Both the position numbers and the translations under genes were made by a program. 64,000 bases of DNA from NCBI RefSeq assembly GCF_963675165.1, contig NC_087384.1, positions 5,263,182 through 5,327,181 on the forward strand, given 5' to 3'. A model generated the notes under the pieces. The model worked only from the letters and a program-made list of their open reading frames with translations, was not told the DNA's origin and ran no database searches. Source of the DNA: Halichondria panicea. Lineage: Eukaryota > Porifera > Demospongiae > Suberitida > Halichondriidae. Positions 607 through 61,359 of the stretch are shown in pieces. The first letter of the stretch is position 1. Each line of letters opens with the position of its first letter.

Positions 607-1440
607 ATGGCGCAAGAGTTCCCTCTAGCTGAAACAGACGGAATTGGTAAATATCTACAACAAGAGTATGGTCCGCCTAAGCCTCCAAATACACATATTG
701 GATGCTTCTACATCAGTCTTGGACATGAAATTAGTAAGTCTCCAATGACTCAACCCTAAGCAATTGATACCCTAAACGGCATACCAGGCCTAACCATATG
801 GGGCAAAACAGAGCCAGGAATCATTTTCCTTATAAACCCCGAAGCAACAGCACCTAATGAACGTGTACGAGAAGCTGATATAAACGAAACTATTCGATTG
901 AAATTGATTACGAAATTAAGGGAACTACACAAAAACTACTACTCCCCGCTCCCAATCCATATCATGTTTAGCAGAGCTTGTTTGTACACTGATGAAGATA
1001 ACAAACGTGCTAGCAGCCATGAGATAACAACAGAAAATATTGGGGAAATTATCAAAAGCGTGTATGAGAATGATGCTGCAGGAAACACCCACATCGAATG
1101 CTTTTACCTTTTCGTACAAGCAGTTCTCGATGGGGAAATATTTCAAATTAATGACAAAGACGTAAATGTGCACAGTGGCGCTTTAGAAGAGCTCAAAACA
1201 CTACTGGGAGATTGGAAATCAGTTGAACCTCGAGCAACATGGCCAGGAAAATTTTTTGGCTATTTTCCAAAGGGAATGCAACCGATGACAGAACGAGAGA
1301 GGGAGAAAATACTCAACGGAGAAGTACGAATGCCTCTTATTAAAAGATTGGAAGCTAAGCTTTTAAATGTTACTCTGAGAGGTGGTTCAAAGATAAAAAT
1401 TAAAGTTATAATCACACGAGCTTGCAAATACACATCCTAA
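607..1440 (+). pseudogene. Subfamily A two-half-domain gene with one in-frame stop
   Basis: This is a family copy that reads open from ATG 607 (GAAATGG context, as in intact A genes) for 50 codons, meets TAA at 757-759, then continues in the same frame for 226 codons to TAA 1438-1440. The first half carries HIGCFYIS, then WGKTEPG, and ends IMFSRACLY. The second half carries HIECFYLFVQAV, WPGKFFGYFPKG, TEREREKILNGEVRMPL and ends IITRACKYTS. Comparison with the copy at 45441 puts the stop where a glutamate codon would be expected, so GAA to TAA is the simplest explanation. No other damage is visible, so it may be a recent pseudogene, a null allele, or a sequencing error. The family is unknown to me. 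I see no canonical module A or B upstream, only CACGTGATTAA at about 470 and 535. Confidence 0.85.
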
Positions 1441-2120
1441 ACGATTGTGTATACATACTTGACAATTGTATATAATTATAGGTGGCAGTTATAGTGACTA
1501 AAAATATGTTGTGTGTTCAAAGTACAATATATACGTATAATTATGTACATATATACGACCAAATAGTGGTACAGTTTTTGTAATTGTCATGCATTAATTT
1601 AAAAATAACGTATGTAATAAGCCTATAAGTACCAATACTTTGGGCCTCAGCTCAATGAAGCTGCCACCATTCATGCAAGCACATTGCATTGTATATACGT
1701 ATACAAAGCTCAATGTGTACCTTACTCAAAAGTACTCGATATAGGCACCATTCTATGCACACATCTATAATTATATCTTACTGTGTACAATAACAATATA
1801 CATACATGCAGCCTCATACAAGGTGTATTGAATACGTCTATAGCAACAGACAACATGTTGTGTGGGTGGTTTGGCTCACAGTGAAACCCTATACGTATAT
1901 AGTATCAAGGTATGTGTGCTGTATATAAACATTAATTTTATATCCAGAAATCGAGGCTGACAGCTATCTATACATATTTAAAATTCATATTGTGTGGGAG
2001 TATCGTTAAAAATTAGGAACAAAGAAAATATGAATACAGGCTATACATACCATAATTATACATTTACTACACGTGCAGTTATAAGCAGTGAACATTCATA
2101 CGTATATGTAGTTATACATG

Positions 2121-2143
2121 CACCGGATGTTGCATGTGACTAA
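2121..2143 (+). promoter_or_regulatory. Upstream module A
   Basis: A 23-base block, core CCGGATGTTGCATGTGACTA, lies about 125 bases before the ATG at 2268. The same core recurs upstream of other family genes (about 4219, 17593 in reverse, 31175, and diverged at 35445, 50442, 58066 and 59809). A role in transcription is inferred from recurrence and position only. Confidence 0.5.
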
Positions 2144-2267
2144 AGATTGATGTACATTTTATTCCAATCAAGTGCCTGCATTGGGAAAGAATCAGTAACT
2201 GCATGTGAGCTTCAACTGAGAGATTCCAGTATTATACATAAACAGTGTAGTAATTATAAGTGGAGAA

Positions 2268-3068
2268 ATGGCAGAGCAACTAGCTCCAACTGACAGTATT
2301 GGTATTCATCTAAAAGAAGAGTATGGTTCTAAGCCTCCAAATACACATATTGGATGCTTCTACATCAAGCTTGGACAAGAAATTTGTCAGTATCCCAGGA
2401 TTCTACTAAAAGCAATTGATGCCCTCAAAAGTATACTAGGATCGACCAAATGGGGAAAAACAGATCCAGGAGTATTTTTCTTCAAAGCCCCAGAAACAAC
2501 AACAACTGATGAACGTAAACACGAGGAAGAGATGAACGCTCAAATTCGGGAGAAGTTGATGACAGATTTGCAAGGACATGATACTGGCATCCATATCATA
2601 CTTAGTAGAGCATGTTTATACACAGAAAATAGCCGTGAGATAACAACAGAGGAAATCGGGGAAAAATTAACATACGTGTGTGAGCACAACGTCACAGGAA
2701 GCACCCACATCGACTATTTTTACCTTTTCATACAAGCAGTTGTCAGAGAGGAAAGCTTTGACAAGAAACAAGCCAAAATAAAGAATGAAAAGGTGCAAAG
2801 TAAGGCTTTGGAAGAGCTCAAAACACTACCGGGAAATTGGAAATCAGTGAAACCCCAAGAAACATGGCCAGGAACATTTTTTGGCTTTTTTCCAAACGGA
2901 TTAAATGAACGACACCGGGAGGAACTACTTAACGGGGAGGTACGAATACCTCTTATTGAAAGATTGGAAGCTAAACTTGAAGGTAAGAAGATTCATGACA
3001 GTCTTGGCCTGGAGCTAAAAGTTCAGGTCATAATCACACGAGCTTGCAAATACACACCAACAGAATGA
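2268..3068 (+). CDS. Subfamily A two-half-domain protein, 266 aa
   Basis: This is an intact single-exon gene of unrecognised function. Half one is residues 1 to about 122: DSIGIHLKEEYGS, THIGCFYIKLGQEI, WGKTDPGVFFF, DERKHEEEMNAQIRE and IILSRACLY. Half two is about 128 to 266: EITTEEIGEKL, THIDYFYLFIQAV, LPGNWKSV, TWPGTFFGFFPNG, NERHREELLNGEVRIPL and VIITRACKYT. The two halves align with each other, which implies an internal duplication. It is hydrophilic, with no signal peptide or membrane helix, so a cytosolic location is inferred. The ATG at 2268 is chosen because it matches the GAAATGGCA start of sister genes. Module A lies about 125 bases upstream. The second half is interrupted by a charged Lys/Glu stretch, as in other A members. 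Confidence 0.85.
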   Translation: MAEQLAPTDSIGIHLKEEYGSKPPNTHIGCFYIKLGQEICQYPRILLKAIDALKSILGSTKWGKTDPGVFFFKAPETTTTDERKHEEEMNAQIREKLMTDLQGHDTGIHIILSRACLYTENSREITTEEIGEKLTYVCEHNVTGSTHIDYFYLFIQAVVREESFDKKQAKIKNEKVQSKALEELKTLPGNWKSVKPQETWPGTFFGFFPNGLNERHREELLNGEVRIPLIERLEAKLEGKKIHDSLGLELKVQVIITRACKYTPTE

Positions 3069-3354
3069 ACACATCCTAACAATTTGATATTTGAACATAC
3101 GGTAGTTAGCAATGATTGTGACAAACATTTTATTCACCTGTTTGTGTTTTGACAGTACAATTGTGATTGCATTTGAGTGTGATGCACCACTCAAACACAT
3201 TGCATACAAAGCTCTAATCTATGTACTACGTATGTAAATTTTTAATTCAAAAGTACTAAGTACTTAATTTATCTACGCACACAGGGATAAAACAATAGCA
3301 TATAATACTAAAGTGTGTGTGTCGTCTAAAAGTCTAATTTAACTATAATTAAGC

Positions 3355-3815: not shown

Positions 3816-4218
3816 CTCTAAACATGTTAACATGGCTACAAATATATGCTACATACATGTACGTATCCGTTGAGCAGGATAGTGATTTATACTGTGCACC
3901 TGTTTACTAACAGAAGCCCTGTTATGTGAAGCCTATAGTAATGAGCAAAAAGCCCGATAGTTGTATGCAAGAAGACTATATCAAGGATGTCTAAAGTTAT
4001 GAATACGATTAGTAATAGGATGCTATAAATCATGTGATACTATAGTGTAACATCAGAATAAAATATCTAGTATGCAAGCAGAGACACGAACATTAATACA
4101 AGTTAAGACAGTTTACAGTGAGTATTTGAATGTGAGAGAGTTATATAATTCTGTTAACGTATAAAAATAATACTGTCAGTAACAGTACAACAGTACACGT
4201 TCAGACAATAGTTGCATG

Positions 4219-4241
4219 CACAGGATGTTACATGTGACTAA
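4219..4241 (+). promoter_or_regulatory. Upstream module A
   Basis: Variant of module A (CAGGATGTTACATGTGACTA) about 280 bases before the ATG at 4518. A second shared stretch follows at about 4390-4480 with ACTTCCCACTATAAAG. This stretch resembles the proximal regions of 31439, 50699 and 55320 and may hold a TATA-like core. Confidence 0.45.
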
Positions 4242-4517: not shown

Positions 4518-5360
4518 ATGGCAAGGAAAGAAATGGCAGTGACACTACTTACTGAAGAAATTGGTGATCACCTACAACAAGAATATGGTTCTGAGCCTCC
4601 AAGTACACACATTGGATGCTTCTACATCAAGCTTGGACAAGAGATTAGTAACTCTCCAATCAGCCAAAAAGAAGCACTTGATACCATCAACCGTTTTATG
4701 ATAGGTCCGAATCAATGGGTCAAATCAGTGGCAGGATGGGATGGAGTCCTTTTCTTTCAGAACTCAGAAGCAACAACGAATCCGAATAATGAACGCGACA
4801 TTGAATTAAAGATAAACGATACTATTCGACGGCCTATGATTACAGATTTCTATATCATGTTTAGTAGAGCTTGTCTGTACAAAGAGAATATGGAATATGC
4901 TAGCAGCCAGGAGATGACAACAGACAAGATTGGGGAAATTATGGAAAACGTGTACGAGCACAATACCATAGGAAGCACTCACATCGAATACTTCTACCTT
5001 TTTGTACAAGCTGTTGTCAGAGAAGAAAGCAGTGACACAAAACAGCGTACGATAAAGGACGAAAAGGTGCACATTGAGGCATTAGCAGTGCTAAAAACAC
5101 TACCAGGAGATTGGGAAGCAGTGGAACCTCAAACAATGTGGCCAGGAACATTTTTTGGCTTTTTTCCAAAGAAAATGCAACCAATGACAGAACGAGAGAG
5201 GGAGAAAATACTCAACGGGGAGGTACGAATGCCTCTTATTGAAAGATTGGGACCTAAGCTTGAAGAAATGAAGCTTATTAATGACCTGAAGCCAAAAGTT
5301 CAGGTTATAATAACACGAGCTTGTAAATACACCCCGATAATTAAAGAGGCCACATCCTAA
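4518..5360 (+). CDS. Subfamily A two-half-domain protein, 280 aa
   Basis: Intact single-exon family gene. Two ATGs in good context are possible: 4518 (AGCATGG) and 4533 (GAAATGG). The latter aligns with the starts at 607, 2268 and 45441 and would give 275 aa. An upstream GTG at 4509 is in frame but is not expected to be used in an animal. Half one has IGDHLQQEYGSEPP, HIGCFYIKLGQEI, WDGVLFF and IMFSRACLY. Half two has HIEYFYLFVQAVVREE, MWPGTFFGFFPKK, TEREREKILNGEVRMPL and VIITRACKYTP. The closest relative in the window is the disrupted gene at 50699, which shares the extended amino end, the IKDEKVHIEALAVLK segment and the C-terminal IIKEATS. Function unknown. Confidence 0.87.
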   Translation: MARKEMAVTLLTEEIGDHLQQEYGSEPPSTHIGCFYIKLGQEISNSPISQKEALDTINRFMIGPNQWVKSVAGWDGVLFFQNSEATTNPNNERDIELKINDTIRRPMITDFYIMFSRACLYKENMEYASSQEMTTDKIGEIMENVYEHNTIGSTHIEYFYLFVQAVVREESSDTKQRTIKDEKVHIEALAVLKTLPGDWEAVEPQTMWPGTFFGFFPKKMQPMTEREREKILNGEVRMPLIERLGPKLEEMKLINDLKPKVQVIITRACKYTPIIKEATS

Positions 5361-6741
5361 CTGAACAGATTATAATTGTTGGATTAATTTTTGTAACAGA
5401 GTATTGATATACACATGCAGTTTTGCGATTGTTTTTGTAGAAGTGGAAATTAGCTCTTACCTATAGTACTAATAATTATGAAATTAGCTCTTACGTATAG
5501 TACTAATAATTATGACACTCAGTTTCTTATAACATTATAGACAGGTCACAGATCAAACTGGGTGGGGGCCCAGCCACCATTCCAGCACATACTGTTAACA
5601 TAAATTATGTGTGTATACACGTCTACAACTTGAAAAGTAGCTTTTATCTATGCACACAGGGATATGCTGTTGTCACACTTTGGCTGTCAATATTACATGA
5701 ATAGAAGGTACAGTCATGGGTTATTCCATACGAATAGCAAAACACTTCGTAAGTGGCCCCTCATGCAAAACTGTGGTCATAAACATTAATTCTTATATCG
5801 TTTAAAGTCTATTTGTGTTGAGTTTGAGCTTCATGATGTTGTCATAACTTTGTCGTACTTACACTGAAATTCACGTTTCATGGGATTCCTTGCCTATAAA
5901 AAGCGCTTCAGAATCTATATCTATTATGCTGTAGAGCTGATAAGCTTAAACCAGCTAAAGGATATATTCCATGTACATGCAGATTTGTTCAATCAAAACA
6001 TGATCAAAAGTACTCGATAAGCACTACTAATCTATATATATATATGCACCCAGGAATACACTGTTACACAACAGTTTCAAGTATGCCATCACTAAAATGA
6101 TGTTACTGCATGTGTGTGTGCAGTTGTCAGTGTGTGTGTGTGTCGTCAAAAGTCTAGGAACTAATTAGCAAATGAATACTAGGTACACGGGTCATTCAAC
6201 ACTTAATGGGTGACACCTTAGAATTGTGGCCAAATATTCGCTTATCCACTTATAGATGGTCATAATTGGGCACTTGAAATTTGAATGTTTAAACGAGTCG
6301 GCAGGAATTAGTCTGTATAGTGCAGTATTGTGAATTCCAGAATGGAGAGCCAATTTTTACTTATCAGAATTTGGATATACCATAATATAGACTCGGTCAA
6401 CAGAGTGTGAGTTGACATTAATCGCGCTTTGCCATGCTACATTCGTATCCGTTGAGCAAGGCAGTGAGTGACTTACTGTTACACATGAAGTATACTATAT
6501 TCATGAACGCAGAAATCTGTTGACATGCAGTATTATGTGAGGCCTATAATAATTATTATGACATTAAACAAAGCCAGTTAGAAATTTTTACGCAGGGAGT
6601 TTACCCGGTAAGTACATACATGATTATTTTTACGCCCTATTACATTCTACACATACCTATTGTCAGCAAAAGTCTAGAACAATAAGTCTGTAAATATGGT
6701 ATTGTCTATATAATTATAGCACTCATAAGTAACAGCTCACA

Positions 6742-6772
6742 CACGTCATGGTTTTGGCCATAAAAGTAGCCA
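6742..6772 (+). promoter_or_regulatory. Upstream module B
   Basis: Block with ACACGTCATGGTTTTGGC and CCATAAAAGTA, about 85 bases before the ATG at 6850. The same block precedes 20129, 34379, 45441 and 60562 and, in reverse, 13230. CCATAAAAG resembles a TATA box and CACGTG, present in several copies, an E-box; both roles are inferred. Confidence 0.5.
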
Positions 6773-6849
6773 CAATAACAAACAGCAATCTATAGCTGCT
6801 GACTACTTAAGTGACTCACATAGCTACAAAGTTTTGTCTGTACATTAAC

Positions 6850-7610
6850 ATGGAAAATAGAACTGCTAAAGTTGGAGCAATACTGGAGAGAGAGAGTACG
6901 GTCATCTACAGGATCAGAATCTACATATTGAATACTTTTTCCTCATACTTGGAACAAAACTTCTTGGCAAACGAGATGAAATCATTGACACATTGGGCGG
7001 CACAGCTGCATGGGATACCCTCGGGAAAAAAGGGCCTCAACTATTGTTTAGTACAGGTAAATATCTGAAAATATCAACATTTGAGACGGAGCGCCAACGA
7101 GAGGAGAGGCTCAATCTTCTTATTCGAGTGCCGTTACTTGCTAAATATGCTGACCCCCACAACCAACCACATATCATTGTCAGCCGTGTTTGCGAGTACA
7201 AAACAGAGCCTTTTCAAGTGGTCAAGAACAGCTTGAGTACTCCCGTGATAGAAAGCATTCTCAGAACCCCTAGCGACGAGCACTTGGATTATTTCTATCT
7301 TATGATAACACAACTTCCATTAACAGAAGTTGAGCTACCCTCGAGCGTGGAAGTTGTGCTACCCTCGAGCATCGATCTAGCACCACAAATTCCTGGAGAT
7401 TGGAAGGTAGTTGAGCCTGACGCCGCTTTTCCACTCACATTCATCAGCTATTTTCCCAAAAAACTTTTAAAAACGGAGCGTCAGAGAGAGTGGCGACTGA
7501 ACAAAGAAGTCCGAATACCTCTTAAGAAATGCCAGAATATACCTCTTAGACTACCAGAGAAACTTGTTAATATTGTGTTCACACGTGCTTGCATATACAC
7601 AAATATGTAG
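6850..7610 (+). pseudogene. Subfamily B gene broken by a 2-bp insertion
   Basis: Duplicate of the intact gene at 20129. From ATG 6850 the reading frame is lost within 20 codons, where the GA run (CTGGAGAGAGAGAGTACGG) has two bases more than the intact copy. The correct frame then stays open from about 6890 to TAG at 7608-7610. It retains LGTKLLGKRDEI, AWDTLGKKGPQLLF, ERQREERLN, VSRVCEY, DEHLDYFYLMITQ, ERQREWRLNKEVRIPL and FTRACIYTNM. It also has a small internal duplication (VELPSS then VVLPSS) and a shortened stretch before the final strand. Replication slippage in the GA run is the likely cause. Confidence 0.87.
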
Positions 7611-13230: not shown

Positions 13231-13294
13231 GTTAATGTACAGATAAAACTTGGTCTTTCAATAAGTGTAGCCGGAGATTGCTCTCTGTTTATTG

Positions 13295-13315
13295 TATGGT
13301 CAAAGCTATCACGTG
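13295..13315 (-). promoter_or_regulatory. Upstream module B (minus strand)
   Basis: On the minus strand this reads CACGTGATAGCTTTGACCAT, matching the CACGTGATGGTTTTGACCAT core before the other B and C genes. A promoter role is inferred from conserved position. Confidence 0.5.
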
Positions 13316-13504
13316 CATATAGCCGTTATTTATGAATATTTTGACACTGCCATATTCACAGTTATACTTATTGTTCTAGACTTTTGGTGACAATAGTTAC
13401 AGTATCACATGATTTAAAATCAAACTAGTACACAATATCTTATTATTTAATCGTATTCATAACTTTTGGTATACTAGTTGCCAAGTAATGTTCTTGCATA
13501 TAAC

Positions 13505-17592: not shown

Positions 17593-17615
17593 TTAGTCAC
17601 ATGCAACATCCGGTG
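17593..17615 (-). promoter_or_regulatory. Upstream module A (minus strand)
   Basis: Exact core on the minus strand (CCGGATGTTGCATGTGACTA), oriented towards the C gene that starts at 16883. The distance, about 710 bases, is unusually long. The intervening sequence is AT-rich with an R1 fragment. Confidence 0.5.
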
Positions 17616-17802
17616 TATGCAACTATAGCAAACAATTGTATGCTTATACTATTCATACTTGTCATAACAACACTCCCACACAATAAGAATTTCAAATACT
17701 CATGCACTGCACGTGCAAAATTTAAGTACACTGCCATTATTATTTGTACCAATGTTTATATCCCTGGTCAGCTTTATGTTACCTTGATGCTATAGCCTCG
17801 TT

Positions 17803-17936: not shown

Positions 17937-20020
17937 TTTGGGAAATCGCGTGATCCACAAGAATTGTTATGAACGTGGGCGATATGTAGCCCACAATCAT
18001 GACGTAAGGTATTATCCCACGTATTCAGAGTTAATAAGACTGTACTGAGACACTGCCAAGGTACCAAGCTACTGCAAGTCAGGGAACCAGCGTGGCCAGC
18101 TCTGGTGACAGTAGCTACCTGCTATATAGATGATAATGATGACTAAGCTATATTCTGAATCTAAACACACGATCTAGACTAGTACAGCTAGCTAGCTTGT
18201 ATAAACAGCTTGCAAACTTCCAGTTCCAAGTCCATGTCCAGCTTGCTGCAGGCAAATGTTTATTAGTCGTAGATCTCTACGTGGGCAGTCCAACATCTCT
18301 AGCTCTGCATGCCTACGCTACCCTTCTACCACCCTCACGCGACTTCCCGATACAGGCTCTCCTTTTTCCTCTTTATCCCTCCAATTAATACTGTATTTTA
18401 TCAATTGTGATAAAGAACAGAAAAAGGAGAGCGTGTGTAGAGGCTACATTGATGCTACAGTACATTGAGCTCTGTAAACATGAACATGCATTATTGTATG
18501 TGTACACTTTATATCTGTTGTCAAGGTTACAAGCGTGTAATAAAAGTCACACAGTCTCTTCCGTTTTATACACGGTCGCGTAGCTTCAAGGCTAGAGGAG
18601 GTTGGTCACGCTAGTTAAAACTGTCCATAAAACTGCTTATCAAATCCCCAAGATAAAAATTATGACCATGCACAAACTGCTAAAATCAGGGTACTTGTCT
18701 GGATTCTGCACTATAGTACTACTATATAGGGAAGCTTTAGAGGACACGATTTAAACTGTGGTGAAACATGCTATGCGAACAGTGTTGGCCTCAAATTCGC
18801 CTTCAACCTGCTGAGTCTGCACTTTTGTCTCATTCTTGCATTCCTGCAGTACTAATAATTATGACACTCAGTTTCTTATAACATTATAGACAGGTCACAG
18901 ATCAAACTAGGTGGGGGCCCAGCCACCATTCCAGCACATTACTGTTAAACATAAATTATGTGTGTATACACGTCTACAACTTGAAAAGTAGCTTTTATCT
19001 ATGCACACAGGGATATGGTGTTGTCACACTTTGGCTGTCAATATTACATGAATAGAAGGTACATGGGTTATTCCATACGAATAGCAAAACACTGGTCATA
19101 CACATTAATTCTTATCGTTTAAAGTCTATTTGTGTTGAGTTTGACCTTCATAATGTTGTCATAACTTTGTCGTACTTACACTGAAATTCAAAGTTTCATG
19201 GATTCCTTGTCTAGAAAAAGCGCTTCTATATCTATATGCTGTAGAGCTGATAAGCTTAAACCAGCTAAAAGATATATTCCATGTACATGCAGATTTGTTC
19301 AATCAAAAGTACTTGATAAGCACTACTAATCTATAATATTATATGCACGCAGGAATACACTGTTACACAACCATTTCAAGTATGCCATCACTAAAATGAT
19401 GCTTCTGCATGCATGTGTGTGTGTGCGTCGTCAAAAGTCTAGGAACTAATTAACCAAATGAATACAAGGTACACGGGTCATTCCACACTTAATGGGTGAC
19501 ACCTCAGAATTGTGGCCAAATATTCGCTTATCCACTTATAGATGGTCATAATTGGGCACTTGAAATTTGAATGTTTAAATGAGTCAGCACGAAGTCTGTA
19601 TAGTGCAGTATTGTGAATTCCAGAATGGAGAGCCAATTTTTACTTATCAGAATTTGGATATACCATATAGACTCAGTCAACAGAGTGTGAGTTGACATAA
19701 TCATGCTTTGCCATGCTACATTCGTATCCGTTGAGCAAGGCAGTGAGTGACTTACTGTTACACATGAAGTATACTATATTCATGTACGCAGAAATCTGTT
19801 GACAGTATTATGTGAGGCCTATAATAATTATTATGACATTAAACAAAAGCCAGTTAGAAATTTTTACGCAGGGACTTTACCTGGTAAGTACGTACATGAT
19901 TATTTTTACGCCCTATTACATTACACACATGCATACCTATTGTCGGCAAAAGTCTAGAACAATAAGTCTGTAAATAATTATGGTATTGTCTATATATAGC
20001 ACTCATAAGTAACAGCTCAC

Positions 20021-20051
20021 GCACGTCATGGTTTTGGCCATAAAAGTAGCC
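20021..20051 (+). promoter_or_regulatory. Upstream module B
   Basis: GCACGTCATGGTTTTGGCC followed by ATAAAAGTAGCC, about 80 bases before the ATG at 20129. Paralogous to 6742-6772. Confidence 0.5.
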
Positions 20052-31197: not shown

Positions 31198-31438
31198 GAT
31201 ATAGAATGATGTGATCAACTATAAGCAAGAGTACAGAATACAGACAAGGACTGCATGCGATTTACAATCACAAATCTCTGCAAGTAGCTGTATTAAGAAA
31301 GATAACTGTGAGCTTCAACTTCACAATTCTGTATCTAGTCAGATATAACTTCCCGCTATAGGTAGTAAATTAGCATATCTGTATGACACACACCGGCCTG
31401 ACTTGCAACAAAGAAAAAAAACCAAAATTGTGAAGAGC

Positions 31439-32265
31439 ATGGAAGCCTACGAAGTTAAAACTGAAATTATTGGAAAAAAACTCCAGGCAGAATATGGTAA
31501 AAAAGATCCCAACACTCCAATAAACTACTTCATGATTCTGTTGGGCACACGGATATCGCAAAAGCTAAAAGACTCTGAGCAAAAATTTGCAGAAAGCCTT
31601 AATCAACTTGGAATGAATGTTTGGAGGATAAAGGATGATGGCTGGACGGCACGAAAATTGCTCTTTATTGAGTACAACATCAATTCGGCAATGAGTGTCA
31701 AAGAGAGTATGCAGTGAATGTGAAGGTTCGTGAAGACTTGAAGCAAAGGTACAATGATTTAGTTAAGGCTGAGGAGATGCGAGGCATCACAGACGTTCAA
31801 ATCATACTCAGTTGAGTTTGCTTGTACTATGAAAAAGACGGCCAATCCCAGCAACAGCCAGATCAACCGGATCAACGGCTACCTTTTATAACTACCGACG
31901 AAATCGAAAGTATTCTATACTCACAAGTAGGAGACACTCCGATTGACTACTTCTATCTCTTCATTCAAGTGGAAGAGAATGAAAACCCTAAAGATGTGCA
32001 TGAGACAGCCTCACCAATCCTGAAAGATCTGCCAGGAGAGTGGAGACGTCTTGATGAAGCGAACTGGCCAGGAGTATACATTGGACATTACCCCAAGACA
32101 TCAGGATTCATGACTGAGAGAGAAAAGGAGATGAGTCTGAACGAAAAAGTCCAAAAGCCTCTCATTGAGAAAATTCAACCACAGATCAGGCAAATGCTCA
32201 CGGATGCAAGTGAGCCTGAAGCTGAGTCCGAGGCTAAAGTTCACGTTATAATCACACGTGCGTGA
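31439..32265 (+). pseudogene. Subfamily D gene with frameshift and stop
   Basis: ATG 31439 opens a frame with KTEIIGKKLQAEYGKKDP, TPINYFMILLGTRIS and DDGWTARKLLFIEYN. The frame is then lost at about 31695 near the ER-type motif. In the shifted frame, VKVREDLKQRYNDL and VQIILS follow, then TGA at 31813-31815 in place of the arginine of RACLY. The second half is open: PDQPDQRLPFITTDEIES, TPIDYFYLFIQVEEN, LPGEWRRLDEANWPGVYIG, TEREKEMSLNEKVQKPLI and VHVIITRA. It ends early because a 2-base loss turns the expected Cys-Glu-Tyr end into TGA. Three lesions make it a clear pseudogene. The closest intact relative is 35618. Confidence 0.85.
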
Positions 32266-32835
32266 AATAGACTATACTGCATGTTTGTTAGTGCTGATTA
32301 TGGCTAGCAGGAGAGTACTAATTATAACCATATAAATGCAATATTTCGAATTACTTGCACATGTATCTGGCTAATTGAATATTATTATGTATGTTTATTT
32401 CTTGATGATGCAAATGCACAAATGCATAATTGTCAAGCTATATATAGTCGGCTAAAAAAATACTAGCCTATAGTAATACATACAGTCATAATTATATGCA
32501 TATGCATATGCATAGTATCAAACGCAGTGTGCATTATTGCTATCATGTAGACAGCCATGATCATGTACAGTGTAACTGTAGAGCAAGCTTCCATGCATTG
32601 TATACGTACACATCGTATATAATTTATTATACGTACTATACATTCGAACTGCTTGTATGGTTTATATCAATAGGAAGTCTTTAGAGTATGCAACTCCACT
32701 TAAAGCCGTAGTAGGTGTTCTGTTCAACCTACGTCACAACCACATGCTGTTGTATAAACTGATACTGATGTTATTCATGGTCTTTCTTTACATGTGGTTG
32801 AGATTTTATCAATATTGTTATAGCCAGTTAAGTTG

Positions 32836-33068
32836 ACTGGCCAGGAGTTTACTTCGGCCATTTTCCCAAGACATCAGGATTTATGACTGAGAGAGAAAGG
32901 GAGATGAGTTTGAACAAAAAAGTCCGAGAGCCTCTCATTGAGAAAATGCAACCAAAGATCAGGAAAATGCTCACGGAAGCGGATGTAAGTGGAACTGAGT
33001 CCGAGGCTAAAGTTTATGTTATAATTACACGTGAGTACAACAAAAAACATATGCCATGCACGTACTGA
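32836..33068 (+). pseudogene. Subfamily D C-terminal fragment
   Basis: Only the last third of a D gene is present: WPGVYFGHFPKTSGFMTERE, REMSLNKKVREPLIEKMQ and VYVIITR, then EYNKK directly, because the Ala-Cys codons of RACEY are missing. Upstream sequence is unrelated. No initiation context. Confidence 0.8.
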
Positions 33069-35444: not shown

Positions 35445-35472
35445 TATCCGGTGCATATTGCATGTGACTAAG
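35445..35472 (+). promoter_or_regulatory. Upstream module A (variant)
   Basis: CCGGTGCATATTGCATGTGA then CTAA, about 145 bases before ATG 35618. The spacing within the core differs from the consensus. Confidence 0.4.
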
Positions 35473-37479: not shown

Positions 37480-37611
37480 GGGAAGGTACCCTGCAATACC
37501 TCTCATTCAAAGCTAAGCTTGAACGTAAGAAGCTTCACGACAGTCTTGGCCTGGAGAGCTAAAAGTTCAGATCATAATCACACGAGCTTGCAAACGTACA
37601 CCAATGAAATG
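37480..37611 (+). pseudogene. Subfamily A C-terminal fragment
   Basis: Matches the last 45 codons of the 2268 gene: IPLIQS-like, KAKLERKKLHDSLGLE, then a short insertion with an in-frame stop, KVQIIITRACKRTPMK and TGA. It immediately follows repeat R3, so the fragment is bounded by repeat sequence. Confidence 0.75.
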
Positions 37612-38974: not shown

Positions 38975-39148
38975 AGAAGGGGAAAATATACTCGACGGGG
39001 AAGTACGAATGCCTCTTATTGAAAGATTGGGAGCTAATATTAAGTGCATGAAGAAATGAAACTTACTCATTACTGAAGCCAAAAGTTCAGGTCATAATAA
39101 CACGAGCTTGCAAATACACAGAAGAAAGAATGGAAACAACATCCTAAA
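38975..39148 (+). pseudogene. Subfamily A C-terminal fragment
   Basis: GENILDGEVRMPLIERLGA is readable, then a disturbed stretch (EEMK, stop), and AKSSGHNNTSLQIHR-like out-of-frame remains of VQVIITRACKYT. It matches the 4518 group. Broken by indels. Confidence 0.7.
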
Positions 39149-40277: not shown

Positions 40278-41608
40278 TATGTATAATTATGATTATACAT
40301 GTGTATACAGCTTGAAAAGTAGATTTTATATATATGCACACAGGGATATGCTGTTGTTACACAAATATTGTATACATAAGATTTGCTCAATAAAAAGTAC
40401 TCGTAAGCACTATATTATCTATGCACGCACGGATACACTGTTACACAACCATTTCAAATATGCCATCACTAAAATTATGCTTACTGCATGTATATGTGTG
40501 TGTGCAGTTTTCAGTGTGTGTGTGTGTGTGTGTGTGTCGTCAAAAGTCTAGGAACTAATTAGCAAATGAATACAAGGTACACGGGTCATTCAACACTTAA
40601 TGGGTGACACCTTAGAATTGTGGCCAAATATTCGCTTATTCACTTATATAGATAGTCATAATTGGGTATTTGAAAATTAAATGAGTCAGCAGAAAGTCTG
40701 TAGTCATGCAGTATTGTGAATAAAGCAAACTGTTCCAGAATGGACAGCCAACTTCACTTCTCAGAATAATTATGAATTTGGACTGGAGTTAATATAGAGT
40801 GTAATATAGAGTGTGAGTTGACATAACTGGTGTGGCCAAATATTTGCTTATCCACTTATATAGGTGATCATGAGTACTGGGCATTTGAACTTTGAAATTT
40901 GAATGTTTGAATGAGTCGGCAGGAAGTCTAGTGCTAGTGTTGTGAATAAAGTAAACACTCATGCAGAGTTACGTATACTGTACAATAAACAACAAACACT
41001 GAGCTGTTATTCCTTATAATGTATTACAGTTTACTTAACACTGTCAGGACACCTAGGGGAGTGTGTATAAAGACTGAATATAGCTATATCATCAGCATAG
41101 TACCAGTATAGTACACAGTGAGTGACACTGTAAAGGACAAAATTATCATTGGCACCAGTAAACATGTTTAGTAAACATGTTTAGAGTGATCAGTAGCTCT
41201 CTCGTTCAGAATTTTCACTTAGCTAGATCATTAGTCAATACACACAATACGTACATTGTGTATTGAATATGTGTATATACAAAGTGTGAGCGATAAAACA
41301 ATAGATGTACAAACACAAGGAACTATATGACTTTGTAGGAACTGACTTATACCTGCATGTATATACATGGCCACAAATACATGCTACTATAGATGTACAT
41401 ATTCGTTGAGCAAGGTAGTGACTTATACTGTACACCTGTTTACTAAGCAGAAACCCTGCATGTTATGTGAAGCCCATAGGGTAATAGCAAAAGGCTATAT
41501 GTAGCTTGATAGTTGTATCAAGAGCATTACTTGGTAAATATAATTATATGTACTATCAAGGACATTTATAACAGTTATGAATACGATTAGTGAATACAAA
41601 TCATGGAG

Positions 41609-41689
41609 TTTCAGGCCCAGGGCATACCTCTGCCAGAGAAACTTGTTAGTATTGTGTTCACACGTGCTTGCACATACACAAATATGTAA
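41609..41689 (+). pseudogene. Subfamily B C-terminal fragment
   Basis: The last 27 codons of the 20129 gene: FQAQGIPLPEKLVSIVFTRA then CTYTNM and TAA. The match is essentially exact, so this is a recent partial duplication in otherwise unrelated sequence. Confidence 0.85.
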
Positions 41690-44384: not shown

Positions 44385-44665
44385 AAAAAAAATGGCAACA
44401 ACATAAATGTGTACAGTGAAGCTTTAGAAGAGTTCAAAACACTACCGGAAGACCGGGAGATTGGAAATCAGTTGAACCTCGAACAACATGGCCAGGAAAA
44501 TTTTTTTGATTTTTTCCAAAGGGAATGCAACCAATGTCAGAACGAGAGAGAGAGAAGGTACTCACACAGGGAAGTACGAATGCTTCTTATTGAAAGATTG
44601 AAAGCTAAATGTTACTCTGAGCGGTGGCTAAAAAAAATTACATGAGCTTGCAAATACATCCAACA
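44385..44665 (+). pseudogene. Subfamily A second-half fragment
   Basis: NINVYSEALEEFKTLP, a local duplication around GGAGATTGG that shifts frame, then QHGQENFF-like remains of WPGKFF, NERERRYSHREVRMLLIERL, and a terminal out-of-frame TRACKY. It matches the 607 copy best. Truncated at its 5' end by MITE sequence and at its 3' end by a palindrome. Confidence 0.75.
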
Positions 44666-44850: not shown

Positions 44851-45266
44851 TTGTACATACAATTATGTATGTAAGTGCATGGCAGTTAATGACTGATTGT
44901 TTTCAAAATACATTCATAATGCTATACTGTATAACGGGTATATTTCGAGGGACTTTCGCAGAAAAAACTTTTCGAGCCTTTCTGCAGCATGCATGCATAC
45001 ATGCCAGTGATAATAATATTCGTGGGTATAATTGTTTGTGGTACATGCTTAATTAATCAGCAAAAACCACAAACGTTTATACGCTCAAAATATAGCCTAT
45101 ATATATATACGGTACGTACATGTTACATGTATTTCTGACCAATTAGACTTGATAATTGCATCATATGCAACTATACATGTATTGTGTGTGCAAAAGTCTA
45201 GAACAATAACAAATGTAATTATGGCAATGTCTATATATATATATAGTGTAAGTATAACAGGTCACG

Positions 45267-45293
45267 CACGTGATGGTTTTGCCATAAAAGTAA
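45267..45293 (+). promoter_or_regulatory. Upstream module B
   Basis: CACGTGATGGTTTTGCCATA followed by AAAGTAACTGCTGAC, about 150 bases before ATG 45441. Note that this A-type gene uses module B, whereas most A genes have module A. Confidence 0.5.
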
Positions 45294-45440
45294 CTGCTGA
45301 CTCACTAAAGTAACTTAATTATTACAGAACTAAAAAGAGTTTAATTTACTAAGTCTTCATTAAACACGATGATAATAGCTTAGCTATAAAGCAGTTGAGT
45401 CTATGCATGCAGGGTCAAATCTATCGATATAACGAAATAA

Positions 45441-46289
45441 ATGGCAGTGCAAGTAGGTCAAACTGATGATATTGGTGAGTACTTACAACGAGAGTATGGT
45501 TCTAAGCCTCCAAATACACACATTGGATGCTTCTACATCAAGCTTGGACAAGAAATTAGTGAATCTCCCATGAGCCAACAAAAAGAAGCAATTGCTACCC
45601 TCAACCGTATACTAGGTCCGGGTCATTGGGTCAAAACAGAGCCAGGATGGGATGGAATCATTTTCTTTCGGGCCCATGCAGAAACAGCGAAAAATGAACG
45701 CGAAATTGAAGCAAATATAAACGATACTATTCGATTTCCTTTGATTACAGATTTGAGCGGACAAAGCCCTAGCCATATTATGTTTAGTAGAGCTTGCTTG
45801 TACAAAGAAAAAGATAACAAATGTATGAGCAATCAGAAGATAACAACAGACACGATCGGAAAAATTATGGAAGACGTGTACGAGCACGATGACATTGGAA
45901 GCACCCACATCGAATACTTCTATCTTTTTGTACAAGCTGTTGTCAGAGAAGGAAGCAGCGACACAAAACAAGTTAACATAAAAGAAGAAAAGGTGCACAG
46001 TAAGGCTTTAGAAGAGCTCAAAAAATTACCGGGAAATTGGAAATCAGTCGAACCTCAAGAAACATGGCCAGGAACATTTTTTGGCTTTTTTCCAAAGGAA
46101 ATGCAACCGATGACAGAGCGAAAGAGAGAGAAGATACTGAATGGGGAGGTACGAATGCCTCTTATTGAAAGATTGGGAGCTAAGCTTGATGATAAGAAAT
46201 ACAATGAGAGCCTTGGCCTGAAGCTAAAAGTTCAAGTGATAATAACACGAGCTTGCAAATACACACCAATAAAAATGGACACATCCTAA
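45441..46289 (+). CDS. Subfamily A two-half-domain protein, 282 aa
   Basis: Intact single-exon gene and a good reference copy for the subfamily. Half one has TDDIGEYLQREYGSKPP, THIGCFYIKLGQEISES, ATLNRILGPGHWVKTEPG, WDGIIFFRA, NEREIEANINDTIRFPLI and IMFSRACLYKEK. Half two has ITTDTIGKIMEDVYEHDD, THIEYFYLFVQAVVREG, a charged stretch about 25 residues long, LEELKKLPGNWKSVEPQE, TWPGTFFGFFPKEM, TERKREKILNGEVRMPL and VIITRACKYTPIK. ATG 45441 (AAATGG) is supported by alignment with 2268. No signal or membrane segment. It ends TAA 46287-46289. The role is unknown. Confidence 0.88.
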   Translation: MAVQVGQTDDIGEYLQREYGSKPPNTHIGCFYIKLGQEISESPMSQQKEAIATLNRILGPGHWVKTEPGWDGIIFFRAHAETAKNEREIEANINDTIRFPLITDLSGQSPSHIMFSRACLYKEKDNKCMSNQKITTDTIGKIMEDVYEHDDIGSTHIEYFYLFVQAVVREGSSDTKQVNIKEEKVHSKALEELKKLPGNWKSVEPQETWPGTFFGFFPKEMQPMTERKREKILNGEVRMPLIERLGAKLDDKKYNESLGLKLKVQVIITRACKYTPIKMDTS

Positions 46290-48195: not shown

Positions 48196-48556
<361 letters not shown>

Positions 48557-53037: not shown

Positions 53038-54892
53038 AGCTAGAGTTAGAGGCTAGAGAGAAGCTCGATCCCAGGCCGCTCTTCAGGCCAGGCCTAGTGA
53101 AGGAGGCTATAGAGAGAAGGCTGCCTGCACTGCACTGCACTGAAGGACTCTGGAGGCTCCTAACTTCTTCACTGCCACTGTAACTTACCATGCCCAGTCA
53201 CAAGTCTCCAATTGCTACATACACAATTGAACATGAGCATGCAAAGATATAAGCATCAGGGCAACTGAGATGTTTCTGTGTAGACAATTTATTACGAGCT
53301 AGGGTAATCGAGTATAGGTTGAGTAGGTTGAAATCAGTGATGCAAACTTGCACGTATCTTTTAGTAGAGTTCTAGCTGTAACTTTATAATTTGTTATTGT
53401 CACACATTAATGTTAATTTGACAATGAACGGTAACTTCCACTAAATGTGAGATCAACAATGCTTCGACAAAATGACAACACATGTGTTCAAATAACAATC
53501 TACCATTATAATAACAAATATTAATAGTTAGATAAACTATATTAATAGTTAAATAAACTATGATTTGTCGTTATAACAATAATTGCAGGAAATTGACAAA
53601 CGTTTTGTCAAGATAACATTTTGTGCTGGTAGCAAACTGTGTCACAATAACAAAAGTGTTTTTGCAGTGTATGGTTCTGAGCCTCCAAACAATACACATA
53701 TTGGATGCTTCTACATCAAGCTTGGACAAGAAATAAGTAACTCTGAAAAAGAAGCACTTGATACCATCAACCGTATTATAGGTCCGAATCAATGGGTCAA
53801 ATCAGTGGCAGGATGGGATGGAGTCCTTTTCTTTCAGAACTCAGAAGCAACAACGAATGATGAACGCAAAATTGAATTCAAGATAAACGATACTATTCGA
53901 AAGCCTTTGATTACGGATTTGAGCGAACACGGTCCTGACATCCATATCAAGTTTAGTAGAGCTTGTCTGTACACAAAGGATATGAAATGCGCTAGCAGCC
54001 AGGGGTTAACAACAGACAAGATCGGGGAAATTATGAAAAACGTGTATGAGCAAAATGTCAGTGAAACCGCTCACATCGAATATTTTTTCTTTTTGTACAA
54101 GCTGTTATCGGAGAGGAAAGCAGTGACACAAAACAATGTACGATAAAGGACAAAAAGGTGCACATTGAGGCATTAGCAGTGCTCAAAACACTACCGGGAG
54201 ATTGGGAAGCAGTGGAACCTCAAACAACGTGGCCAGGAACATTTTTCGGCTTTTTTCCAAAGAAACTGCAACCAATTACAGAACGAGAGAGGGAGAAAAT
54301 ACTCAACGGGGAAGTACGAATGCCTCTCATTCAAAGATTGGAAGCTAAGCTTGAAGAAATGAAGCTTAATGACCTGAAGCCAAAAGTTCAGGTTATAATA
54401 ACACGAGCTTGTAAATACACCCCGATAATTAAAGAGGCCACATCCTAACTGATGGTCTAATTTTTGTCAGAGTATTCTAAGAAATACATATGCCGTTCTG
54501 TGATTGTTTTTGTAAGAAGTGGAAACTAACTCTAATACTATATATGACACTCAATACGCACATATGCATAATTAGTTTTTTTTTTGTGAACGAGCAAAAT
54601 TAATGACTCTGCATGCAGAGACAATTATATTATAACCACATGACAACATTGCATGAATGTTCTTAACCAAATACACTTTCGATTTCAGTTTCTTAGATCA
54701 CAGATTAAATTGGGTGCAAGCACATTACTGTTAAACATATAATTATGTATGTATACACGTTTACCTTACTAATATTTCTAGTGATCGACCTATGAACACA
54801 CACAAACAAACAAACTTGGTCACACAGCTCTGAAACAATGCTTATACATTTAGGACTAGCTGACTACACAATAGTTAGACACTGTTTTGGAG

Positions 54893-55319: not shown

Positions 55320-56150
55320 ATGCCTAAGAAAGAGAGCAACTCCTTACCAAGTCTTTATCAAAAAACAATGGAACAGAACATATCATTTATAACCACGGAT
55401 GACTTTGGAAAGAAATTGAAAGAAGAATATTCTCCACCAACAGATCAAAATAAACATATTGATTACTTCTACTTCCGAGGTTCTGAAGACAAACATCATA
55501 TTGCAGACAAAATTGTTCAACGTTTCAAAACATTTGTGGGTGATGATTTCTTTACATTGATAGATCAGGAATGGCTAGGCTTTACAATAATTAAGTACCC
55601 ATTGGCAGAAGAAACAAGCGAAGATGTCAGGGAGAAGATGATCAACGAAAAGCTTCGATCCCCAATTGCTAGTGACCTGACAGACACCAAGGTCATTTTC
55701 AGCCGAGCTTGCCTCTACCACAGCTATGACATGAATGAAGATACTATCCAGGCGAGTGATATCGGAAAAGTCATGAAACAAGGCAATGCTCAACAAGAGG
55801 ATACACATAACACCCATCAAGATTTTTTCTATCTCACAGTTCGAATTAAGCCCCAGGAGACATTAAATGTTTCCTCATTTCTTAGGAGACTCCCTGGAAA
55901 TTGGAAGAAATTAGAACCGCATGATACCTGGCCAGATACCTTCTTGGGACATTTTCCGAAGTCACCTTTCGATAAAACAGAGCGCGAAAGGGAAGCTCGT
56001 CTCAATCGTGAAGTTCGACTTCCTCTCATGAAGGTGTTAGAAGATGAACTCATGACAACTTATCCCAAGACTGGGGACATGATCGAGAGGAGAGTTCTGG
56101 TTTTGATGACCAGAGCCTGTAAACTTGAATCTGCTAATACTGGAATCTAA
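55320..56150 (+). CDS. Subfamily C two-half-domain protein, 276 aa
   Basis: Intact single-exon gene, nearly a mirror copy of 16107-16883 on the other strand. ATG 55320 gives 276 aa. An internal ATG at 55368 (ACAATGG) aligns with the start of the minus-strand paralogue and gives 260 aa, and I think it more likely. Half one has ITTDDFGKKLKEEYSPP, HIDYFYFRGSEDK, DQEWLGFTIIKYPL, VREKMINEKLRSPI and VIFSRACLYHSYD. Half two has IQASDIGKVMKQGNAQQ, THQDFFYLTVRIKPQ, LRRLPGNWKKLEPHDTWP, TFLGHFPKSPFDKTERERE, ARLNREVRLPLMKVLED and VLVLMTRACKLES. Cytosolic by inspection. No clear module A; a weak TACGTGACTAA is at about 55113. Confidence 0.87.
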   Translation: MPKKESNSLPSLYQKTMEQNISFITTDDFGKKLKEEYSPPTDQNKHIDYFYFRGSEDKHHIADKIVQRFKTFVGDDFFTLIDQEWLGFTIIKYPLAEETSEDVREKMINEKLRSPIASDLTDTKVIFSRACLYHSYDMNEDTIQASDIGKVMKQGNAQQEDTHNTHQDFFYLTVRIKPQETLNVSSFLRRLPGNWKKLEPHDTWPDTFLGHFPKSPFDKTEREREARLNREVRLPLMKVLEDELMTTYPKTGDMIERRVLVLMTRACKLESANTGI

Positions 56151-59965: not shown

Positions 59966-59999
59966 GTCAATATAAATCATATGTTCAAACATTGGATGT

Positions 60000-60205
60000 G
60001 TTCATTCTGTTGGTGTGTATTTGCAAGCTCATGTGATTATGATCTGAACTTTTAGCTCCAGGCCATGACTCTAGCTTCTTACGTTCAAGCTTAGCTTCCA
60101 ATCTTTCAATAAGAGGTTTCAATTTCCCTGTATAGTGTTTTGAGCTCATGTAAAGCCTCCTTTTTATTCTTCTTAGCTTGTCTTTTGCTTTCCTCTCTGA
60201 CAATG
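60000..60205 (-). pseudogene. A-type C-terminal fragment in opposite orientation
   Basis: On the minus strand: KPLIERLEAKLERKKL, then a frame change and DHNHMSLQIHTNRMNTSNV, which is the +1 frame reading of a VIITRACKYTPTE-type end. It matches 2268 and lies inverted next to the A-type start fragment at 59906. Confidence 0.65.
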
Positions 60206-60458
60206 TGCATTCATGTATAAGTAAAATGGTCAGTTTAATTGTGATGTTTTTGTGAATATTATAAATGCATTAATTTGGGGAATTTCTATGCAGATGCCAC
60301 CACTCCACCACTCAAACACAAATCTCAATGTGCTCAATAGATATACCACTCAATTGCATTATACATACATTGAAAGCTGTGTATACTGTATTTGCTCAAT
60401 AGGTATACCCTTAATAGTAAAAGTTAGTGTGCGTGTTTATCTAAGGCAGTGACGGCTC

Positions 60459-60512
60459 GTGCATGCGATGGTTTTGACCATAAAAGTAACTGCTGACTCA
60501 CTAAAGTAACCT
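60459..60512 (+). promoter_or_regulatory. Upstream module B
   Basis: GATGGTTTTGACCATAAAAG and TAACTGCTGACTCACTAAAG, about 80 bases before ATG 60562. Very close to the module in front of the 45441 gene, although that gene is subfamily A. Confidence 0.5.
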
Positions 60513-60561
60513 AATTCTTACAGAGCTGAGAAAAACTCCATACTGTAAGTCTTTAAACACA

Positions 60562-61359
60562 ATGGCCCAGAGCCTTTCACCTAAACCTATGACCACGGAT
60601 GAAATTGGAAAGCTATTGCAAGACAAATATTCTCCACCAACAGATCAAAATGTACATATCGATTACTTCTACTTTCGAGTATCTGAAAAGAAAGCCACTA
60701 TTGCAGAGACGTTTATTCCTGATCTAAAAACAAAGTTAGGGAATGATTTCTGCGCAATGGTAGATCCAAAATGGCCAGGTTTTATAATGATTTGCTTCCC
60801 AAAACAAACAAACGAAGAAGAAAGGGAGAAGGCTATCGACGAATATCTTCGATCCCCAATTTCTAGAAATACAGACACGATGGTCACAGTTCATAGAGCT
60901 TGCCTCTACCCCAGCTATGAGATGAGTCAAAAAACTATCAAAACTGTCCAAGCGATTGACATCGGAGATGTTATGGAACAAACCAATGCTCAACAACAGG
61001 ATGCAAAGAACACCCATCAAGATTTCTTCTACCTCATGATTAATCACCCACAGATATTGAATGTTTCTTCATTTCTTAGGACACTCCCAGGAAATTGGAT
61101 GAAAGTGGAACCGCAAGATGATTGGCCAGATACCTTCTTGGGAGATTTTCCAAAGGCACACGTCGATAAAACAGAGCGTGAAAGGGAAGCTCGTCTCAAT
61201 CGTGAAGTTCGACTTCCTCTCATGAAAATGTTAGAAGATGAAGTCATGACAGCTTATCCCAAGACTGGGGACAGGGTCGAGCGGAAAGTTCAGGTTTTGA
61301 TAACCAGAGCCCTTAAAGATAAAAATGCTAATACTGGCATAAAATATCATAGTTTCTGA
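60562..61359 (+). CDS. Subfamily C two-half-domain protein, 265 aa
   Basis: Intact single-exon gene; ATG 60562 (CACAATGG). Half one has MTTDEIGKLLQDKYSPP, HIDYFYFRVSEKK, DPKWPGFIMICFPKQ, EEREKAIDEYLRSPI and VTVHRACLYPSYE. The serine of SRACLY is histidine here. Half two has VQAIDIGDVMEQTN, THQDFFYLMINHPQ, LRTLPGNWMKVEPQDDWP, TFLGDFPKAHVDKTERERE, ARLNREVRLPLMKMLED and VQVLITRALKDKN. The cysteine of the second RAC motif is lost (RAL), so that cysteine is not needed for the fold. It is the most diverged C member in half one. Module B is upstream. Cytosolic by inspection; function unknown. Confidence 0.87.
   Translation: MAQSLSPKPMTTDEIGKLLQDKYSPPTDQNVHIDYFYFRVSEKKATIAETFIPDLKTKLGNDFCAMVDPKWPGFIMICFPKQTNEEEREKAIDEYLRSPISRNTDTMVTVHRACLYPSYEMSQKTIKTVQAIDIGDVMEQTNAQQQDAKNTHQDFFYLMINHPQILNVSSFLRTLPGNWMKVEPQDDWPDTFLGDFPKAHVDKTEREREARLNREVRLPLMKMLEDEVMTAYPKTGDRVERKVQVLITRALKDKNANTGIKYHSF

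What the first reader, a model, noticed from the sequence alone, without database searches (positions are those of the whole stretch)
607..61359. An apparently undescribed, rapidly duplicating two-half-domain protein family
Nine intact and four nearly complete broken single-exon genes, plus about a dozen fragments, share a fold signature I cannot assign to any known family (ER-x-RE...N..V/IR.PL, then hydrophobic strand and RAC.Y). High copy number, mixed orientation, several recent pseudogenes and strong divergence between subfamilies suggest birth-and-death evolution, as seen in recognition or defence gene clusters. The function is not inferable from sequence.
Basis: partly seen in the sequence, partly recalled or inferred. 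Interest (0 to 1): 0.85.

Follow-up and report, generated by a model that had tools for sequence, protein, structure and literature searches.

The report
Orphan gene cluster, private upstream modules
A stretch of an animal genome, probably a sponge's, carries many copies of a fast-evolving gene that matched no protein family we could search; most intact copies share short upstream sequences that a whole-genome scan found only at this family, so they look like a working gene family, perhaps for defence, but their job is unproven.

Summary
The window has nine intact single-ORF genes and four nearly complete broken copies. It is part of a ~153 kb cluster (C8:5.212-5.365 Mb) with 17 intact copies; two intact copies and one broken copy lie on C12 and C1. 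Each protein is an internal duplication; AlphaFold2 predicts each half as a helix plus beta-alpha-beta-beta-alpha-beta (ferredoxin-like). Pfam, PADLOC, PHROGs, NCBIfam, PDB-sequence, prokaryote and viral searches gave nothing convincing, and no structural match reached E<=1e-3; eukaryote protein databases could not be searched. New here: (1) two upstream modules (22-23 bp patterns, up to 2 mismatches) occur genome-wide only here: 9 of 9 hits upstream of family copies, 10 of 10 inside the cluster; reversed controls 0. (2) One gene's upstream DNA aligns with other subfamilies', suggesting exchange. (3) The N-half evolves faster than the C-half (dN/dS 0.80 vs 0.41, 8 sister pairs; weaker in distant pairs). 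(4) A GBP-type GTPase gene sits inside the cluster and one outlying copy lies near a NACHT gene, but another lies among housekeeping genes. Best explanation, not shown: a soluble intracellular defence-type family.

The parts
2268..3068 (+). intact gene, subfamily A, 266 aa
   Evidence: ORF; profile; subfamily; 98.6% copy downstream of the window
4518..5360 (+). intact gene, subfamily A, 280 aa
12475..13230 (-). intact gene, subfamily B, 251 aa
16107..16883 (-). intact gene, subfamily C, 258 aa
20129..20893 (+). intact gene, subfamily B, 254 aa
35618..36493 (+). intact gene, subfamily D, 291 aa, with a PDQ-rich linker between the halves
   Evidence: tandem repeat
45441..46289 (+). intact gene, subfamily A, 282 aa, with upstream DNA alignable to that of B and C genes
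55320..56150 (+). intact gene, subfamily C, 276 aa (second ATG at 55368)
60562..61359 (+). intact gene, subfamily C, 265 aa
628..1437 (+). broken copy, subfamily A (interrupted near its N-terminus)
6811..7604 (+). broken copy, subfamily B (interrupted near its N-terminus)
31433..32262 (+). broken copy in two pieces, nearest to subfamily D by DNA match
53670..54436 (+). broken copy in two pieces, nearest to subfamily A by DNA match
32835..33044 (+). C-terminal fragment
   Evidence: E=1e-20
37553..37606 (+). short C-terminal fragment
   Evidence: E=3e-4
38976..39138 (+). C-terminal fragment in two pieces
41606..41683 (+). C-terminal fragment
   Evidence: E=8e-5
44400..44612 (+). C-half fragment
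2120..2143 (+). upstream module M2 (exact) before the ATG at 2268; promoter role inferred from position
4218..4241 (+). upstream module M2 (2 mismatches) before 4518
17593..17616 (-). upstream module M2, about 730 bp before the start at 16883
31174..31197 (+). upstream module M2 before the broken copy at 31433
35449..35471 (+). weaker M2 (5 mismatches) before 35618
6669..6768 (+). upstream module M1 (M1a at 6669-6686, M1b at 6742-6768) before the broken copy at 6811
13289..13384 (-). upstream module M1 (M1a exact at 13367-13384; M1b weaker, 5 mismatches) before the start at 13230
19949..20048 (+). upstream module M1 (M1a exact, M1b 2 mismatches) before 20129
45193..45314 (+). upstream module M1 (M1a 1 mismatch at 45193-45210, M1c exact at 45295-45314; M1b only at 7 mismatches, within background) before 45441
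60462..60510 (+). upstream module M1 (M1b core exact, M1c exact) before 60562

Best explanation
A lineage-restricted family of soluble, probably cytosolic host proteins, apparently single-exon. Each protein is a fused pair of ferredoxin-like half-domains, forming a built-in pseudo-dimer. The C-terminal half is constrained and carries the ERxRE...N..VR.PL helix and the RAC strand; I infer that it is the constant working or docking part. The N-terminal half, above all its first two helices, changes quickly and would be the part that meets a changing partner. Copies arise and die by segmental duplication, and most intact copies stand behind one of two upstream modules private to the family. The most likely role is a cell-autonomous defence or recognition repertoire. 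Shown: gene layout, duplication, upstream modules, unequal constraint. Predicted: the fold. Inferred: promoter function of the modules, cytosolic location, constant/variable division of labour, defence role.
For: 19 intact copies (17 clustered, 2 elsewhere), broken copies and 91-99% segmental duplications. Four subfamilies, each 100/99 at its base. In 8 independent sister pairs dN/dS is 0.80 (0.61-1.04) in the N-half and 0.41 (0.30-0.55) in the C-half; bootstrap P 0.001; permutation of dN alone 0 of 5000. In 5 intact-only pairs it is 0.77 against 0.41. M1b core: 9 of 9 genome hits upstream of family copies, intact or broken; M2: 10 of 10 inside the cluster, 9 of them within 750 bp of a family copy on the same strand; reversed controls 0 (up to 2 mismatches). 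15 of 19 intact copies carry M1 or M2 parts beyond shuffled background. No membrane-type hydrophobic stretch: maximum 19-residue hydropathy 1.42 in 24 ORFs. A GBP-FN3 gene lies inside the cluster; a NACHT gene whose last LRR-like frame ends about 3 kb before one outlying copy.
Against: Defence is inferred from evolutionary style and neighbours only. The N-half dN/dS interval reaches 1 but does not clear it, so relaxed constraint fits as well as positive selection. Three of the 8 sister pairs include a broken copy. In five more distant intact pairs the contrast shrinks and the intervals overlap: 0.59 (0.44-0.79) against 0.42 (0.32-0.54). The C12 copy lies between Integrator-2 and Piezo exons. 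Interferon-type and kappaB-type patterns: 0 of 17 upstream regions. The genome has over 100 NACHT hits, so one adjacency means little; the LRR match there is below Pfam's cut-off. Four of 19 intact copies have neither module. No expression data.
Confidence: 0.42

Rival explanations
1. A small-molecule-binding or enzymatic family of the dimeric alpha-beta-barrel kind (the broad fold group of chlorite dismutases, Lrp/AsnC ligand domains and stress-responsive A/B-barrel proteins; grouping recalled), expanded for metabolism or detoxification; the conserved E, R, N and C residues would line a pocket between the halves.
For: In the full-length search 12 of the 15 best PDB rows are chlorite dismutase or coproheme decarboxylase. 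Half-domain rows include Lrp/AsnC, SP1 and ClcF folds, all at E 0.69 or worse. E and R are invariant and N and C near-invariant in 24 halves.
Against: All fold hits are weak: best E 4.1e-3 with TM 0.17 at 17 A for the full length; best E 0.24 for the half, where RNA-binding RRM domains rank first and second. No histidine is invariant, so no heme ligand as in the chlorite dismutase group (recalled). No Pfam family hits more than 2 of 24 halves.
Confidence: 0.22
2. A reproductive, larval or structural family whose fast change reflects sexual conflict or relaxed constraint, not microbes.
For: The same evolutionary signature would be expected. TATA-like patterns stand in 11 of 17 upstream regions (shuffle mean 6.4; one of the three patterns was chosen after reading the sequences, and some of the 17 are recent duplicates); this only hints at regulated expression.
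Against: No sign of secretion or membrane insertion, which many such proteins have (recalled).
Confidence: 0.18
3. Captured mobile or viral gene, now spreading or domesticated.
For: Single-ORF genes, dispersed copies on C1 and C12, duplicated blocks.
Against: No confirmed match in PHROGs (best E 0.014), two IMG/VR scans or viral structures. Duplicated blocks are chromosomal DNA carrying upstream modules and a tRNA gene. Terminal repeats around copies were not searched for.
Confidence: 0.08
4. Mostly decaying or non-functional repeats that happen to keep open frames.
For: Many broken copies; some pairs have dN/dS of 0.7-0.84.
Against: C-half dN/dS 0.41 with upper limit 0.55-0.60; 19 intact frames at pairwise dS up to 0.8; family-only upstream modules alike across subfamilies.
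Confidence: 0.05

Closest known systems
Ferredoxin-like (beta-alpha-beta-beta-alpha-beta) fold, tandem two-half arrangement
   Same: Predicted secondary structure of each half and head-to-tail duplication.
   Different: No match at E<=1e-3 in PDB (both models) or BFVD (half only); extra N-terminal helix; own sequence signature.
Chlorite dismutase / coproheme decarboxylase / DyP group (dimeric alpha-beta barrel)
   Same: Two ferredoxin-like halves in one chain (recalled); most frequent weak full-length hits.
   Different: TM about 0.17, no invariant histidine, no sequence match.
Duplicating animal immune repertoires such as sponge NLR genes (PMC12909245, passages seen)
   Same: Local clustering and lineage-style expansion; one copy near a NACHT gene and the cluster around a GBP gene in this genome.
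   Different: No NACHT, LRR, death-fold, GTPase or TIR match in the family; 19 intact copies; single open frame.
Guanylate-binding proteins
   Same: One GBP-FN3 gene lies inside the cluster.
   Different: No Pfam GBP match in the family; neither module was found upstream of the GBP gene.

Membership tests
Any Pfam-A family | score above the curated cut-off | tested here: not met
   10 proteins: five hits, all below cut-off. 24 half-domain rows: best E 0.02, at most 2 of 24 rows for one family; that table shows no cut-offs
Known phage-defence families (PADLOC) | profile match | tested here: not met
   0 of 9 proteins, E up to 1
Chlorite dismutase / coproheme decarboxylase / DyP group | fold: two ferredoxin-like halves forming a barrel (recalled) | tested here: inconclusive
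   Topology agrees; Foldseek E 4.1e-3, TM 0.17; placement of the halves is not reliable at pLDDT 66
Chlorite dismutase / coproheme decarboxylase / DyP group | conserved heme-ligand histidine (recalled) | tested here: not met
   No histidine among the invariant columns of nine proteins
Ferredoxin-like fold class | beta-alpha-beta-beta-alpha-beta order in each half | tested here: met
   AlphaFold2 half-domain pLDDT 80, pTM 0.75; a prediction, and no fold search confirmed it at E<=1e-3
NLR / GBP immune families | NACHT, LRR or GBP GTPase domain | tested here: not met
   No such match in the 10 family proteins scanned
Birth-and-death multigene family | tandem duplicates, pseudogenes, divergent subfamilies | tested here: met
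Host defence or recognition repertoire | induction by microbes or effect on infection | not testable with these tools
   needs RNA-seq or bench work

The most novel reading that the evidence does not exclude
A previously undescribed animal intracellular defence repertoire in which each protein joins a fast-changing sensor half to a constant half of the same fold, with copies switched on by one of two promoter modules owned by this family alone and sometimes exchanged between subfamilies.
Probability: 0.2. Interest if true: 0.8.

Novelty: new variant of a known kind. Interest (0 to 1): 0.56.

Why it matters
Lineage-restricted tandem families are common (established knowledge), but most give no handle on function. 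This one does: two upstream modules that a whole-genome scan found nowhere else, a faster and a slower half, and 19 intact copies with broken counterparts. If microbe-induced, it would be a new class of defence protein in an early-branching animal. If not, it still offers a compact natural case of promoter exchange and of duplicated half-domains changing at different rates.

Tried and rejected
Profile searches: Pfam, PADLOC, PHROGs, NCBIfam, PDB sequences; nothing convincing. Prokaryote and viral collections: 39 candidate stretches in genome contigs and 42 and 8 in viral contigs, none confirmed by tblastn; each scan used only a few short peptide patterns. Fold searches: no hit at E<=1e-3 among 482, 234 and 250 matches at E<=10. 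Interferon-type and kappaB-type patterns: none in 17 upstream regions. CCAAT: 3 of 17 against a shuffle mean of 5.7. Species: a COX1 fragment on C1 with in-frame TGA codons fits a code-4 animal such as a sponge; 131.5 Mb and a large NACHT set fit too, but six cysteine-peptidase genes read (of 77 hits) showed no clear silicatein, so no species is named and 'sponge' is an inference. A death-fold domain that I thought I saw at the start of the NACHT gene was not called by Pfam at E 0.01 and is dropped. Literature: six searches listed nothing that I recognised as this family; the library cannot be searched by sequence. Of the papers, only passages of PMC12909245 were seen; the rest were seen as search listings.

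Rows dropped: of 24 ORFs covering over 200 profile positions, five were judged broken and left out of the intact count (clu_70760, clu_76870, clu_139960, clu_161544, clu_167867). Three of these are in the 8-pair test, as they stand; one search repeats the test without them. One search used 18 of the 24 ORFs. One search listed only matches of 600 bases or more. One search listed only pairs at least 55% alike over at least 200 codons. Modules M1a and M1c were scanned in the cluster and three outlying loci only, not genome-wide. The tree tool warned that long branches meet where subfamilies B and C join, so the order of the subfamilies is not used.
Full report
What is there. The window lies at C8:5263182-5327181 of a 131.5 Mb, 39-contig assembly. 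ORF listing gives the nine intact genes. A profile built from them and run on six-frame ORFs of the window plus 130 kb of adjoining chromosome gives four nearly complete broken copies and six short pieces or groups in the window, and shows that the cluster runs from about C8:5.212 to 5.365 Mb. Counting ATG-to-stop frames with both halves, there are 17 intact copies in the cluster and two elsewhere (C12, L022; C1, L024); one more C1 copy is broken (L023). Three whole-genome protein searches returned hits at these places only; the tool calls such counts lower bounds.

Two halves. N-half and C-half profiles, from 18 of the 24 long ORFs, align with probability 99.7% and E 9.5e-26 over 113 columns. 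Over 24 half-domain rows, one F, two E and one R are invariant, and G, N, R, P, A and C near-invariant.

Fold. The full-length AlphaFold2 model, from 14 window sequences, has mean pLDDT 66 and pTM 0.72. A half-domain model from 24 halves has pLDDT 80 and pTM 0.75, with helix, then beta-alpha-beta-beta-alpha-beta. This is the ferredoxin-like order. Foldseek gives no match at E<=1e-3 in PDB for either model, nor in BFVD for the half. The full-length search puts chlorite dismutases or coproheme decarboxylases in 12 of its first 15 rows, best E 4.1e-3, but TM is about 0.17 and no histidine is invariant. The half-domain search starts with RRM domains at E 0.24 and 0.43. I file the family under neither.

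Duplication history. Self-comparison of the 194 kb (matches of 600 bases or more) shows blocks such as 1817-3216 with offset 66874-68276 at 98.6%, 3754-7874 with 69240-73321 at 90.7%, 18848-21211 with 70981-73375 at 94.1%, and 21200-27600 with 73470-79887 at 96.6% (offsets are window coordinates continued past its end). A tree of 24 ORFs has subfamilies A to D, each with bootstrap 100 and SH-aLRT 99 at its base; the tool warns of long branches where B and C join, so I do not use their order. The letters A to D are mine.

Constraint. Pairwise dN/dS among copies at least 55% alike runs from 0.13 to 0.84. Across 8 sister pairs that share no branch it is 0.80 (0.61-1.04) in the N-half and 0.41 (0.30-0.55) in the C-half. 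The C-half ERxRE helix stands at 0.25, and the two first N-half helices at 1.08 and 1.19, with wide intervals; the N-half strand 1 is low too, at 0.19. Per pair, the N-half value is the higher in six of the seven pairs where both can be computed, and lower in one (the 20129 pair, with very few changes). Five intact-only sister pairs give 0.77 (0.56-1.07) and 0.41 (0.28-0.60); five more distant pairs give 0.59 and 0.42 with overlapping intervals. So the C-half is under clear purifying selection; the N-half is looser, and positive selection is not proven.

Upstream modules. Reading 300 bp upstream of 17 intact cluster genes showed shared blocks. M1 is AAAGTCTAGAACAATAAG (M1a), then in most cases about 55 bp, then CACGTGATGGTTTTGACCATAAAAGTA (M1b), in some genes followed by TGCTGACTCACTAAAGTAAC (M1c). 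M2 is GCACCGGATGTTGCATGTGACTAA. Most lie on the gene's strand some 50-320 bp before it; two M2 blocks lie 600-750 bp before C-type copies, and a few blocks have no family copy within 1.6 kb. Scanning the whole genome with up to two mismatches, the 22-base M1b core occurs 9 times, each time upstream of an intact or broken family copy, including both C1 copies. The 23-base M2 pattern occurs 10 times, all in the cluster, nine within 750 bp of a family copy on the same strand and one about 1.6 kb away. The patterns read backwards give 0. By my arithmetic, with equal base use, chance would give about 0.03 and 0.01 hits. Of 19 intact copies, 9 carry M1 parts and 6 carry M2 beyond the shuffled background; one of the nine (60562) also has a marginal M2 with six mismatches, one of the six (35618) has five mismatches, and four copies carry neither. 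The patterns were chosen from family upstream DNA, so their presence there is by construction; what is informative is their absence elsewhere and their identity across subfamilies: 28 of 28 bases are shared by the A gene at 2268 and the D gene at offset 81392. That they are promoters is inferred from position and strand.

Promoter exchange. The A gene at 45441 has 109 aligned columns upstream at 79% identity to the B gene at 20129, and 67 at 91% to the C gene at 60562, although its protein is only 33-34% identical to those. The simplest reading is recombination that put another subfamily's upstream DNA before an A-type coding sequence; shared ancestry of a slowly changing promoter is the alternative.

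Neighbours. Inside the cluster, about 4.5 to 14 kb before the window, lies a gene with a GBP GTPase domain (E 1.1e-27 on one exon, 9e-9 on the next) followed by fibronectin type III repeats in a 1353-aa open exon; it is one of about seven GBP places in the genome (13 exon hits). The intact C1 copy lies after a gene with a NACHT domain (the best of 102 scored, from 265 candidates) and one LRR match below Pfam's cut-off; its last LRR-like frame ends about 3 kb before the copy. The C12 copy lies between Integrator-2 and Piezo exons. These contexts are suggestive at most.

Organism. Not named.

Most likely working. The proteins lack signal- or membrane-type hydrophobic stretches and so are probably cytosolic or nuclear. 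I think that the C-half supplies a fixed function or docking surface and the N-half a changing contact, in a defence-type repertoire (0.42). The enzyme or ligand-binding reading is the main rival (0.22). Nothing run here separates them.

Novelty. No library held here describes the family, but eukaryote protein databases were not available, and clustered orphan families on common folds are a known kind; hence 'new variant of a known kind'.

Noticed in passing
window 25092-25183 (-); C8:5340555-5340660, 5230081-5230186, 5208085-5208176: A tRNA-Leu(TAA) gene (Rfam 46.6 bits) has four copies in or near the cluster, all on the minus strand, at least two of them in a duplicated block, and three more on C15 and C5.
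   Followed up: partly
L014:5765-6259 and L015:1496-5554 (C8:5248946-5258735): A GBP-type GTPase gene with a 1353-aa open exon holding the end of the GTPase domain and fibronectin type III repeats sits inside the cluster. Open frames of 1468 aa on C11 and 1559 aa at C8:2.79 Mb suggest sister genes.
   Followed up: partly
G000 C7, C13, C14 and other contigs: 102 NACHT hits scored, many in dense local arrays, for example C13:4.06-6.31 Mb and C7:1.5-4.2 Mb.
   Followed up: no
window 48198-48554, 51438-52267, 13503-13842: A CA repeat of 178 copies, a 91-base minisatellite of 9 copies and a 99-base repeat of 3.4 copies.
   Followed up: no
L023 and L024: The two C1 family copies, 0.59 Mb apart, sit in an inverted duplicated segment (99.25% over 1466 bases and 95.7% over 2615 bases); one copy is broken.
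   Followed up: partly
L025 (C1:5280527-5280718): A nuclear COX1 fragment with two in-frame TGA codons, probably a mitochondrial insert.
   Followed up: partly
window 48820-48837 (+): An M1a-like block with one mismatch that has no family copy within 1.8 kb downstream: a possible orphan promoter.
   Followed up: no
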